Shown piece by piece: positions 554 through 33,900 of a DNA stretch of 64,000 nucleotides. Source of the stretch: Tubulanus polymorphus (taxonomy: Eukaryota > Nemertea > Palaeonemertea > Tubulaniformes > Tubulanidae); contig NC_134034.1 of the NCBI RefSeq assembly GCF_964204645.1, forward strand, positions 11,341,414 through 11,405,413, read 5' to 3'. Every line of letters begins with the position of its first letter. Within the stretch, counting starts at the first letter, position 1. The notes beneath the pieces were generated by a model. That model ran no database searches and was not told the origin of the DNA. It was given only the letters and a program-made list of their open reading frames with translations. Position numbers and translations under genes: made by a program.

Positions 554-1962
554 ATTTGTCTGAATTTGGTGTACATATTTCTAACCGATCATCCGCTCCG
601 CTAGCCACGAGGCTTGCGTGAGGGTGAAAGTATTAATATTCTGACACTCAATACACTTTTTTCCTTACACTTTCTAAAACTTCCTTCCGCGAAGACCCGC
701 CTAAAGCTGGATTCATGTCGACGCCTAGACCAACGCAACCGGCCGGATAATCGATCAGCACCACATAACCTCAGCGTTTTCAAACTTCAAAAGAAAAGAT
801 GCCATTGACCGCCATTCAAGAATGGCCAGTGACCTACCTGCAAAACCTTTTGAAATCATTCCCCGAAGCTTTTGGTATTGGTGATGCAACCAATCACCGG
901 TTACGAATTCTAAAGGGGTCAGTTAAAAACTGGTGGGCGCTCCTACAAGTTGTCATTACACATGGAAATTCTACACGGCGAAGAAGTCTCTGTCGCTGGA
1001 TATTTGCTCAGATAGGACACGTTTTAGAAAAAGAGAATTTTCATTAGAATGTAACAAACGCAGCTGAGCTGATAAACTATTTGTTATTAATACAACTGGA
1101 TTTTGGCAACAGGACACGGAATTTAAAAATGACTTTAAGATTGACTCTTAAATAAAAGGATTATATTTTCAAATTGCTGCTTCATCCGCGTTACAAGGTT
1201 GCTGTAAGGTAGGTGGAACATTTATTTAACATTAGCGGTCGAAATTATGTTTTATAGATTTAGATTTAGGAAAAAATAGTTGAACTTTATGTTAGGGTTA
1301 GGTTAGGTTTAATCAACAGGTACCGGTACCCAGTGTTACAGCTTCATGGAAGATACAACAGACTCGCCTACTGATGAAAAACAAGAGCGGTCCGAATTGA
1401 ATAAGGTAGGACATATTTCAGCGTGGACTTATCAACTAGAGTTGATACGTCCATGATTTCAGTGAGAAGAAAAAGACCCCCGGGCCACAGAAGATCGAAC
1501 CCGAAGTTGAATGATGATGACAGAGTGGCTTGAAAAACTTCAGGTGCGACTTGTATGACATGTCTAATAGTTCTTGTAGATAAATAGAATTGATAGAATT
1601 TGTGTTAGTTCTAACTAGTTATTTGACCCCCCAATTAAAGCATAATTTCAACCGTTAATTCTTAGGTATTTTGAATATATTTCACAATTATCCTACGCTC
1701 CCCACCCTCACCCCTCCCCTTAAAACGAAGCTTCTACGATTTTGTGGGTTAAGCCTGACTATGGTAGGATGAGGAATTGACGATTTGGACTTGACAACTT
1801 TTTTCTACATAATAGAAACTACATAAACGTTAACACGTGTAGAGCTAGGGGGTTGGACTATTAACCCCCAAAAGACATACAGATAACAGTGATACAAATA
1901 TAAAACAATAGACAAATATACACTTATATAATATTACACATTAAAAAATGATAGAATTAAAT

Positions 1963-2150
1963 TTTTCACGCGCCATTTTATTTTGAAGTCTCATCTCGCG
2001 TCATTTCATTTTGAAGTCTCATCTCGCGCCATTTTATTTTTCATCTCGCGCCATTTTATTTGGATGTAATCTCGCGCAGTTTTATTTGGAGGTAATCTTG
2101 CGCAATTTTATTTGGAGGTAATCTCGCGCCATTTTATTTGTCTTTTTGCG
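1963..2150. repeat. Minisatellite, about 27 bp unit
   Basis: Six or seven imperfect copies of a unit built on CTCGCGCCATTTTATTT plus GGAGGTAAT lie head to tail. Copy-to-copy differences are substitutions and small indels. No coding potential is seen. Confidence 0.8.
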
Positions 2151-2214
2151 CATCCCAGATACATCACTTATCTTGTTGTTCGGTAATTTATCATATTATA
2201 TCAACTCACTCAGT

Positions 2215-2372
2215 TATATATTGTAATATATATATATGTATTGTAATATATGTATTGTAATATGTATTTTATTATGTATTGTACCATGTGTTATATTATG
2301 TATTGTATTATATATTGTACCATATATTGTAATATGATATGTATTGTACCATGTATTGTATTATGTATTTGT
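2215..2372. repeat. AT-rich minisatellite (TATTGTAATATGTAT-like)
   Basis: Short variants of TATGTATTGTAATA and TATGTATTGTACCATG repeat irregularly over about 150 bases. It is low-complexity sequence. Confidence 0.75.
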
Positions 2373-2425
2373 AATTACTCTTCTCACCCGGTTCTCTCTA
2401 ATTATTGTCAGTCTGCCTATAAATA

Positions 2426-2545
2426 CTGATTATTAGCGAAAGCTTGTGCGTCAAATAAACCTATATTGTATACTTATACTTGTCTCGTTAAAATTATTCT
2501 AAACCCGGTTTATACCCCAGGCTCCTCTACGGAATAAGGGAACAT
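2426..2545 (+). mobile_element. Relict of hammerhead-bearing repeat
   Basis: CTGAT at 2426, GAAA at 2438-2441, a two-pair stem III GC-TTGT-GC (2442-2449) and GTC at 2450-2452 follow the order of a hammerhead core, but stem II has collapsed and the CTGATGA box is changed to CTGATTA. The following bases (AAATAAACC, then ACTTGTCTCGTT and CTAAACCCGGTT) match the tail of the palindromic element at 31390-31955. This is seen in the sequence; assignment to a Penelope-like or retrozyme-type element is inference. Confidence 0.45.
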
Positions 2546-3528
2546 CGTGTTTTAATTCCCGATTCGGACCCGCTGTTGCAGCCTTCGTCAGTGGACACAG
2601 GACAACTCGGGCTGGATTCGAACCCTTGAAAGCAGCACGCCCATTTCTCTTGGACATTGAGGAAAACTTCTAAGACTAAGATTCGATTTCCAGCCTTCTT
2701 TGACGAAGAGAACTTCAGCGGGACAATACTCAGAATTCGAATTTGTGGAATTAACCTGTTTTGGAATTTTCTGCGAAAGCTTCATTTTCTAGAGGAAAAT
2801 AAATCAATTTCATATCGGTAACTATTACGACGAGTAATAGGAAAAATTTTGCCGAAATTGAGAGTATTGAAACAAACACAGCTAACCTACACGGCTGTCT
2901 GGAATCAGTTCTTTCGGGATGAAAAATTTGCAGAAAATTCCGAAACATTTTCATTCCATCACGAAGAGACTGAAATTGACTGGTGACCCACGTACGCTGG
3001 GCGAACTTTGGTTATCGGAGTTAGTCGCGACTATAGTCGAACTAAGTGAAACCGAATGTCAGTTAGTCGGAACCAGTCTGGAAATAGTTCGGAAATAAAG
3101 CGCATTCGGTTATTAGTTCCGACCACTCGTCGACTAGATACGAGAACTGAATTTGGCCCCTACTGAGGAACTAGGATTCTGACCCGGCGAACACGACCAT
3201 CAGCCAGGAACAAGATAGTCCCGACCAGTGTGTGGTCGGCGGATGAGAGAGGATTAATGTACAAGGCAAGCAACATCGGAGCCTCGCTTGGAAGGTCTCC
3301 ACTGAAGGCGCTGCGATAGAATCCCGGTAATTGGACTTTATTAGAATAACATGGCACTAAACGCAGTAGGACAGAGAGCGAATGTCCGCTCCATGAGTCC
3401 GACCGGCTCACATTTCCAGTCCGCTCCATCAATCCATTCGGTGAAACTTCTCTGGACATTCAAGGTCGTCGCGTTTGCAAAATAAATTCTAAACGTGTTT
3501 CGCTCAAAAATTCACGTAAAGACGAAAA

Positions 3529-30943: not shown

Positions 30944-33900
30944 TTACGTACAGCAACCGAAGCGCCACCTATTAATCTCCATATAACCGCAGATCGACCA
31001 TTCGTCTTTTTCTGGGTCGTATTTCTCGACGGAATTCATGTGACTGATGTCGTTATAACCGGCGAGGGCGTACAGACACCCGCGAACCGTTACGAGTCCG
31101 AGTCCGCTACGCTGCAGTTCCATACACGCTATCAGAGTCCATTGATCGGTCGTCGGGCAATAACGCTCAGCAGACGTAACACTATAAAACAACAAATATC
31201 ATCCTTAATCATCAGATCTAGCACGGGGCTGCACCACTGATCTGGAAAACCAGGAAACTCGGAGGAATTTGACCAATTTTACCAAAAACCTGGAAAACTC
31301 AGGGGAATTCAGATAACGCAATTGACCACGTGGTTCTTTATCAGAACACGATTCAATGAAAAGTGAATGAATTGTAACATTTTAAACCTATGAATAAAGA
31401 GACAAGTACTATATTATATAGGTTAACTAGTTTATTTGACGCACGAGCTTTCGCTACAAATGTATGGTAGCTTCGTCATTCACCTGATGAAGCTTCTTAG
31501 CAGCGAAAGCTTGTGCATCAAATAAATAATTAACCTTTAAGCCTAGCGCACATCGACACTGCGATTGGAGACAACTAGTTGCTACCGAACGATTACCCCG
31601 CGCACATCGAAATCTAGTTACAACCGGTCAGTTGCAGCAACTGCGTGGCGCGTGTCGATCGTCGAGATCCAGAGCGCGCACATCGACAGATATGACTGCG
31701 ATTGAGTACAACCAGTTGCTCAAAAGTAGAACATGGGCAACTGGCTGGAACTGGAGATAGATCGACGCTTACCAATCGTAAGCTCGCTCACATCGACACA
31801 TTCAAGCAACTGATCGTATCCAGCCAGTTCCTCTCATGCGCCGAAAACTGCCTTGCAACTAGTTGTCTCCAATCGCAGTGTCGATGTGCGCTAGGCTTTA
31901 TATTACTACTTGTCTCGTTATTCATTCTAAAACCCGGTTACTCTACGAATTTTAAACCTGGAAATTTTCTAATCAGATTTTCACTTCTACTCGAAGCCTT
32001 TCAACTGCTTCGTAAGCCGACTGTCCGCGTCTTACCTGATGTCATTATCCATCCCGCCGACCGCGTAGATGTAATTCTTACACACAGTAACACTTAACAT
32101 ACAACGCCGTACGTGCATATCACTGATTAAACTCCATTTCTCGTCCTGAAAAATATCAACGAAAAAATACAATAAACCTCGCCTTATTCGGGGGTAAGAC
32201 GACCAACTCGGAACATAAAAATGCCATTTTCTGATTTCTCGACGTATTTTTCCGGTCTAACTTTTGAACGATTGTCAAGTGTTTGGTTGTAGTATTAATC
32301 GCTAACCTTTAAATCATATTTTTCAGCCGATTTTAAATCGGTTATTCCGTCGTAGCCACCGATCACGTAGATATAATTATCCAAACAAGTAGCGTCTGCC
32401 ATACTCCTCGAAATTAACATATCTGCGAAAATAACAGACGACTTAGACCAATAGATCAGCTTTCTGACTTTCCCTGCTATAGCGGGATTTGAACTCTTTA
32501 CCTGAAACTTTTTTCCACGTGTTTTCATCGGGGTCGTAACGTTCGACCGAACGAACCGAACTGTAGTCGTTATAACCGCCGAACGCGTAGACGCCGTCTT
32601 CTGCTGCAACCACGGCAACGCTACTACGACATTCCGACATCGGAGACTTCTGCTTCCAAACTTTCGTCTGAAATAATTGAGGAGTACAATAGATGTTGGG
32701 ACAATGGTTTTCTGGTCTCATAGGGCCAGTTGCACAGTCATCGCTTAGATGTAAGACCAGTCTTAGCTCATTTTGGGTTCTATAGCTTATCTAACAACTT
32801 AAAACCAGTCTAAGCTCAATTTAGCTCCAAAGCCAATCTAACAACTTAAGACCAGTCTAAGCTGATTTTAGCTCTAAAGCCAATCTAACAACTTAAAACC
32901 AGTCTAAGCTAATTTTAGCTCTAAAGCCAATCTAACAACTTAAGACCAGTCTAAGCTGATTTTGGTTCTATAGACAATCTAACAATTTAAGACCGGTCTA
33001 AGCTCTGTCTTGCTTCTATAGACAATAACAACTTAAGGCTAGCCTTAAGATTAAAGACAATATCTACGAATTGAGGGTAGACCTTCAACATGTTCATCTG
33101 ACCGCGGTCCAGAACTGCATCCGTATTTTACCTTTAAGTTGAGGACGTGAAGAGTATTCAAAGCGTGCGACGACCAACCACCGACTATGTATAAATCATC
33201 GCCGATAGTAGTAATACCCGGTCCGCGGCACGGCGCTGGAAGACTCGGCATTTTACTCCATTCACCTGTGCCCGGTTTATACACCTCAATACTGTCTAAA
33301 AACTGTCGCCCCGGGGAGCGCTCTCCACCTGAAATAAATAAATTCTTTAAATGATTCGTTACTTTATCCGGTTATAAGTGAGCAGCGAAAGGGTTGTTTT
33401 ACAGGACTCAAACAGGGCGTTTCCCTGACATGGGCGTTGTTTTCCCTGACTTGATCTGCTAAGAATTAACACAGTCAAATGTGTAAAACATTGACGGAAA
33501 ACATTGACGGAAACTGTTTGATTTTAGGCGCGATCAACAAATTTCCCTGAATTATCCCTGATTTTTAGCTTTTTTTATAAAATTCCCTGACTTTTCCCTG
33601 ATTTCCAGGTAATGGGCCACCCATTTCATCCAGAGTGGGCAGTGAAAGGATTGTTTTACGGGATTCATTTTCGATGAGAGTTAAATCCTCACTCACTGCA
33701 GAACTCGATCCACACTTGATGTCTTACCGACTATGTAAATATATTCCTTCTCCATGAATGATTGTCTGGGACGTGACCTCAGAACGGACGGGTTACACTG
33801 ATGAGGCAGTAAATCGGGATGAAACTCTTTCGACTGATACTGATAGGCCTCCTAAAAAAAAAAACAGAACAGATACAGACAAGCGGCCTCAGAAACTCTC

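What the first reader, a model, noticed from the sequence alone, without database searches (positions are those of the whole stretch)
31390..31955. Hammerhead-like cores on both strands of an intronic palindrome
The plus strand has CTGATGA, a stem II, GAAA, GC-TTGT-GC and ATC in hammerhead order (31484-31519); the minus strand has ATGACGA, a GCTA/TAGC stem II, GAAA, GC-TCGT-GC and GTC (31479-31438). They are the two arms of one long palindrome in the kelch gene. A third, decayed copy with the GTC triplet is at 2426-2452 with the same tail. Hammerheads with very short stem III are known from Penelope-like elements and retrozymes. A local stem I is missing, so activity may need dimeric RNA or be lost.
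Basis: partly seen in the sequence, partly recalled or inferred. Interest (0 to 1): 0.65.

Follow-up and report, generated by a model that had tools for sequence, protein, structure and literature searches.

The report
Inverted Penelope element ends, dead hammerhead
The palindrome is an old insertion of two end-fragments of a Penelope-type jumping gene joined head to head in a kelch-gene intron, and the 'ribozyme' on both strands is one hammerhead-like motif of that jumping gene copied twice and probably inactive here.

Summary
The sequence blocks are real, but the two 'ribozymes' are one motif inserted twice. The 31389-31948 palindrome is a head-to-head pair of pseudo-LTR fragments of a Penelope-like element (PLE), flanked by an identical 10-bp target-site duplication (ATTTTAAACC) and split by an unrelated 358-bp MITE (31540-31897). 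The motif belongs to a genome-wide family: 118 strict copies, 0 in the reversed control. In 12 of 26 copies of the PLE's GIY-YIG end it lies 0.2-1 kb downstream on the same strand. In a near full-length copy (L094) it lies 5' of an RT/GIY-YIG coding region. PLE pseudo-LTRs are known to carry minimal hammerheads, and another PLE family in this genome has one with stems I and II (1156 copies). This family's version has an extra A before stem II, a bulged stem III and no stem I beside the core. In the window, the minus-strand core lacks C3 and the plus strand folds into the palindrome hairpin. No Rfam hammerhead match was found, but Rfam also misses the better PLE hammerhead, so that test is weak. 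The 2426-2452 copy is a subfamily with a shared deletion, not private decay. Verdict: ordinary PLE debris with a degenerate hammerhead relative; low interest.

The parts
31379..31388 (.). Left target-site duplication ATTTTAAACC
   Evidence: identical 10-mer on both sides of the palindrome
31389..31478 (-). Left arm: inverted PLE-B pseudo-LTR fragment (minus-strand reading)
   Evidence: inverted repeats; aligns to family reference positions 9-100 on the minus strand
31438..31479 (-). Minus-strand hammerhead-like motif; C3 missing at the junction (AATGACGA-A-GCTACC...TGTAGC-GAAA-GCTCGTGC-GTC)
   Evidence: direct reading
31476..31539 (+). Right arm, first part: direct PLE-B pseudo-LTR fragment from CATTCAC to the MITE insertion point (overlaps the left arm by TCA)
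31484..31519 (+). Plus-strand hammerhead-like motif CTGATGA-A-GCTTCTTAGCAGC-GAAA-GCTTGTGC-ATC
   Evidence: direct reading
31537..31539 (.). MITE target-site duplication TTA (left)
31540..31897 (.). PIF/Harbinger-like MITE, 358 bp, inverted ends AGCCTAGCGCAC/GTGCGCTAGGCT; secondary insertion, not part of the PLE
   Evidence: many copies at 97-99% identity; TTA/TAA flanks in the copies checked
31898..31900 (.). MITE target-site duplication TTA (right)
31901..31948 (+). Right arm, second part, with the PLE-B 'tail' ending CTCTACGA
   Evidence: matches the 3' end of family copies
31949..31958 (.). Right target-site duplication ATTTTAAACC
30947..31198 (-). Kelch-repeat exon of the host BTB-BACK-kelch gene, on the downstream side of the intron holding the insertion
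   Evidence: Kelch_1 E=4e-19
32035..32256 (-). Kelch-repeat exon on the upstream side of the same intron
   Evidence: Kelch_1 E=5e-6
2418..2459 (+). TATA box plus motif remnant CTGATTATTAGCGAAAGCTTGTGCGTCAAATAAA inside a longer repeat (about 880-3366); about 20 copies share this deletion

Best explanation
The feature is a solo inverted pair of pseudo-LTR (pLTR) fragments of a Penelope-like retrotransposon family, here called PLE-B, in an intron of a BTB-kelch gene, later split by a MITE. Shown: PLE-B has RT and GIY-YIG coding regions; its pLTR carries TATA, an Inr-like TCATTC, the motif and a 3' tail, placed between the GIY-YIG end and the next ORF start; the palindromes are head-to-head with target-site duplications of about 9-13 bp. 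Inferred: the element endonuclease cuts both target strands, two cDNAs are primed just upstream of the ORF start, both run to the 5' end of the same RNA and are joined there, so the motif ends up on both strands. The motif sits where PLE hammerheads sit and shares their core, so it is most likely a hammerhead relative. Without stem I beside the core, and with an extra A before stem II, it probably does not self-cleave efficiently in this family, and almost certainly not in this copy.
For: Motif 0.2-1 kb downstream of the PLE-B GIY-YIG end on the same strand in 12 of 26 copies, nine of them at 280-322 nt. GIY-YIG coding sequence upstream of the motif in L078. L094: motif at 192, then RT/GIY-YIG homology to a second PLE (E=3e-37), with the ORF start about 135 nt after the motif. 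Identical 10-bp duplication round the window copy. 11 of 48 insertions have flank matches of 9 nt or more against about 0.7% in controls. Arms end at about 93-95 and 116-123 and start at about 1 and 9, like the inverted, shorter pLTR, tail, head-to-head palindromes and 8-10 bp duplications published for Penelope (PMC3846280). Both-strand priming by a PLE protein in vitro (PMC11167929). A second PLE family here has a hammerhead with stems I and II at about the same distance from its ORF (L093).
Against: Sequence similarity between the PLE-B and L093 pLTRs is not significant, so homology of the two motifs rests on position and core only. Stem II shows one pair with three states (T-A, T.T, A-T) and otherwise little covariation. 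No activity data. About half of the PLE-B ends had no motif within 1 kb under the strict patterns.
Confidence: 0.85

Rival explanations
1. The PLE-B motif is a working hammerhead that acts as a dimer or with a distal, interrupted stem I (UUGACUAU/AUAGUUAA, extended by AUACUGU/ACAGUAU) and processes read-through or tandem PLE RNA.
For: Core CUGAUGA...GAAA...RUC kept in many copies; distal stem folds in long copies (z -2.86 for the 76-nt form; z -1.0 for the longer L094 piece); one compensated stem II pair; PLE minimal hammerheads are reported to act as dimers (PMC7761336).
Against: No pairing at positions 1.1/2.1 beside the core; extra A at the base of stem II; unpaired 16.2; the predicted fold puts the CUGAUGA in a hairpin; the distal strand lies upstream of the inferred start site and is absent from the window copy; a whole subfamily amplified without the CTGATGA half.
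Confidence: 0.12
2. The resemblance to a hammerhead is chance: the motif is just a hairpin in the PLE-B 5' leader and GAAA is a tetraloop of AGC-GAAA-GCT.
For: CTGATGA-gap-GAAA occurs often by chance; no Rfam score; core not strongly more conserved than the rest.
Against: It sits about 135 nt before the ORF start, like the hammerhead of the other PLE here; PLEs are reported to carry hammerheads generally (PMC6155905).
Confidence: 0.25
3. A fold-back DNA transposon or an LTR-retrotransposon R region rather than a PLE.
For: Long inverted repeats; TATA, Inr-like site and AATAAA as in an R region.
Against: The flanking coding region is RT plus GIY-YIG; duplications of about 9-13 bp, variable ends, single-arm copies such as L068 and L088.
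Confidence: 0.02

Closest known systems
Penelope-like elements with inverted pseudo-LTRs (Adineta vaga Pen2a and others, PMC3846280)
   Same: GIY-YIG PLE, pLTR with TATA and Inr, inverted shorter pLTR overlapping the direct one, optional ~30-bp tail, head-to-head palindromes, 8-10 bp duplications
   Different: Here most copies are solo inverted pairs without an ORF; different host; this copy is split by a MITE
Minimal type I hammerheads of PLEs (described in PMC7761336, PMC6155905; Cervera and De la Pena 2014 and Lunse et al. 2017 not readable here)
   Same: Position in the pLTR before the ORF, CUGANGA core, stem II, GAAA
   Different: Known ones have stem I and little or no stem III; this one has a short bulged stem III and no stem I beside the core
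Hammerhead of a second PLE family in this genome (L093:698-738)
   Same: About 135-140 nt before its ORF start; one extra nucleotide before a 6-bp stem II; GAAA; AATAAA after the site
   Different: It has a 6-bp stem I (UUAUUC/GAAUAA) and a palindromic ACGU in place of stem III
Animal non-LTR retrozymes (PMC7229834)
   Same: Short non-coding repeats with hammerhead-like cores
   Different: Retrozymes are direct tandem repeats with well-formed type I hammerheads; these are mostly inverted pairs

Membership tests
Penelope-like element (pLTR) | RT plus GIY-YIG coding region linked to the repeat | tested here: met
Penelope-like element (pLTR) | Inverted, shorter pLTR joined head-to-head to a direct pLTR, with a tail on one arm | tested here: met
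   arm coordinates in most of 48 loci, compared with PMC3846280
Penelope-like element (pLTR) | Variable target-site duplications of about 8-14 bp | tested here: met
   window 10 bp; 11 of 48 loci with 9 nt or more against 0.7% in controls
Hammerhead ribozyme | Core CUGANGA...GAAA...NUH | tested here: met
   plus strand of the window and the family; the minus strand of the window fails, C3 missing
Hammerhead ribozyme | Stem II starting directly after A9 | tested here: not met
   one extra A in the family and the window; the L093 hammerhead also has one extra nucleotide
Hammerhead ribozyme | Stem I paired beside the core | tested here: not met
   CAUUCAC against AAAUAAAUAG; no such pairing in folds
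Hammerhead ribozyme | Stem III continuous with A15.1-U16.1 | tested here: not met
   GAAA-GC-NNNN-GC-RUC leaves 16.2 unpaired
Hammerhead ribozyme | Covariance-model match | tested here: inconclusive
   no match, but the better L093 hammerhead is also missed at E up to 1
Hammerhead ribozyme | Covariation in stems | tested here: inconclusive
   one compensated pair in stem II, with a T.T mismatch at that pair in 21 of 58 copies
Hammerhead ribozyme | Self-cleavage | not testable with these tools
   needs an RNA assay
Retrozyme (animal) | Direct tandem repeats of ~150-450 bp bounded by hammerheads | tested here: not met
   copies are mostly inverted pairs or single arms
PIF/Harbinger MITE (31540-31897) | Terminal inverted repeats and 3-bp TTA/TAA duplication | tested here: met
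   no transposase sought

The most novel reading that the evidence does not exclude
PLE-B carries a variant hammerhead class with a hairpin stem III, a one-nucleotide spacer before stem II and a stem I displaced away from the core, active only in tandem or read-through PLE RNA.
Probability: 0.1. Interest if true: 0.5.

Novelty: new member of a known kind. Interest (0 to 1): 0.25.

Why it matters
It shows how a PLE insertion can put a hammerhead-like core on both strands without any bidirectional ribozyme. It adds many examples of head-to-head PLE insertion with a measured duplication length. It also gives a control: Rfam models fail to score a well-formed PLE hammerhead, so a negative cmscan says little for PLE-type motifs.

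Tried and rejected
Rfam at gathering and permissive thresholds on the window, a near-consensus copy, L093 and L094: no hammerhead. Genome-wide RF00163 and RF00008: nothing over cut-off, but only about 70 candidates each were scored. LTR-retrotransposon R region: considered because of TATA, Inr-like site and AATAAA; dropped when GIY-YIG coding sequence was found upstream. Fold-back DNA transposon: dropped for the same reason. Sequence homology of the PLE-B motif to the L093 pLTR: not significant. Core conservation in 59 distinct copies not selected on the core: 4.0% variable against 8-12% elsewhere, but much of the gap comes from three subfamily columns. Lunse 2017 and Cervera 2014 are not in the library.

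Full report
What is there. The outermost is a 10-bp duplication, ATTTTAAACC, at 31379-31388 and 31949-31958. Inside it lie two inverted arms that overlap by TCA near 31476. The right arm is interrupted at 31540-31897 by a 358-bp MITE with ends AGCCTAGCGCAC/GTGCGCTAGGCT and TTA on both sides; at least 40 copies are 97-99% identical, and those checked are flanked by TTA or TAA. The insertion lies between two kelch-repeat exons of a minus-strand BTB-BACK-kelch gene.

The family. The strict pattern CTGATGA-N(8-24)-CGAAAGC-N4-GC-RTC-AAATAAA has 118 matches in the genome and none in the reversed control. A pattern anchored only on the flanks gives 114. Fuller copies read TATAAATA, about 34 nt, TCATTC (Inr-like), CAC, CTGATGA-A-GCTTCT-N7-AGAAGC-GAAA-GC-N4-GC-GTC, AAATAAATAGTTAACC, then a tail ending CTCTACGAAT. 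Most of the 48 loci examined are head-to-head inverted pairs. One arm ends near position 93-95 and the other at 116-123 of the family reference; one starts at 1 and the other at about 9. Flank matches of 9 nt or more occur in 11 of 48 loci against about 0.7% of shuffled pairings. The family is therefore an insertion product, with target duplications and recurrent arm ends.

What it belongs to. Upstream of the motif in L078 lies a GIY-YIG coding end whose stop codon is about 300 nt before the motif. A genome search with this end finds about 26 copies at 82% identity or more. Twelve of them have the motif within 1 kb downstream on the same strand, nine at 280-322 nt. L094 is a near full-length but broken copy: TATA at 148, motif at 192, ORF start about 135 nt further on, then RT and GIY-YIG homology to another PLE of this genome (E=3e-37), then the beginning of the next pLTR. 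This is a Penelope-like element, here called PLE-B, and the motif is in its pseudo-LTR. Inverted, shortened pLTRs, an optional ~30-bp tail, head-to-head palindromes, 8-10 bp duplications and TATA/Inr promoters are published for Penelope elements (PMC3846280). A PLE protein has been shown to cut and extend both target strands (PMC11167929). That explains how two cDNAs of one RNA end up head to head; applying it here is inference.

Is it a hammerhead? PLE pLTRs are reported to carry minimal type I hammerheads (PMC7761336, PMC6155905). A second PLE family in this genome (L093; ORF with RVT_1 and GIY-YIG) has one with a 6-bp stem I, a 6-bp stem II and ACGU in place of stem III, about 139 nt before its ORF; its pattern has 1156 matches and no control match. 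It folds with stems I and II. The PLE-B motif has nearly the same distance to its ORF and the same core, but no pairing beside the core where stem I should be, an extra A before stem II (the L093 one also has an extra nucleotide), and a two-pair stem III with 16.2 unpaired. A distal stem (UUGACUAU/AUAGUUAA) exists in long copies only. Stem II shows one pair in three states, T-A, T.T and A-T. A subfamily that amplified to about 20 copies has lost the CTGATGA half altogether. I judge it a degenerate hammerhead relative, probably inactive.

The window copy. The minus-strand core has lost C3 at the arm junction, and this is the strand that the kelch gene transcribes. The plus-strand core is complete but lies in a hairpin of -40.5 kcal/mol (z -5.6) formed with the other arm. 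Neither is likely to cleave.

Limits. Rfam found nothing, but it also misses the L093 hammerhead, so it cannot decide. Hammerhead numbering and the defining pairs (1.1/2.1, 10.1/11.1, 15.1/16.1) are from general knowledge of the ribozyme.

Noticed in passing
G000:C4:9-70771, C10:7431-35624, C7:21564363-21570955, contigs C30, C34, C54, C63, C65, C66: A third GIY-YIG PLE family (uninterrupted ~830-aa frames) forms tandem arrays at chromosome and contig ends, with TTAGGG stretches right beside units: telomere-associated, endonuclease-bearing PLE arrays.
   Followed up: partly
G000:C1 about 31.20-31.40 Mb, C2 about 30.95-31.47 Mb, C6 about 22.99 Mb: The L093-type hammerhead also occurs in 69-bp-period tandem arrays near chromosome ends, possibly retrozyme-like satellites.
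   Followed up: no
window 880-3366: Long repeat family, at least 20 copies at about 91-97%, nearly all within about 3 Mb of chromosome ends, carrying the PLE-B promoter with a shared ~50-nt deletion.
   Followed up: partly
G000:C5:7313720-7320417, C4:16803231-16804172, C6:18271826-18275770: Full PLEs also sit as head-to-head inverted pairs and as tandems of 2856-bp period, the same architecture as the short palindromes.
   Followed up: partly
window 31540-31897: 358-bp PIF/Harbinger-like MITE, at least 40 copies at 97-99% identity, so recently active.
   Followed up: partly
L047 (C1:8110-8113 kb): Palindrome whose inverted symmetry continues into the host flank (TATCCATAAGATATCTTGAGAAGATTCG on both sides, inverted), unlike an ordinary direct duplication.
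   Followed up: no
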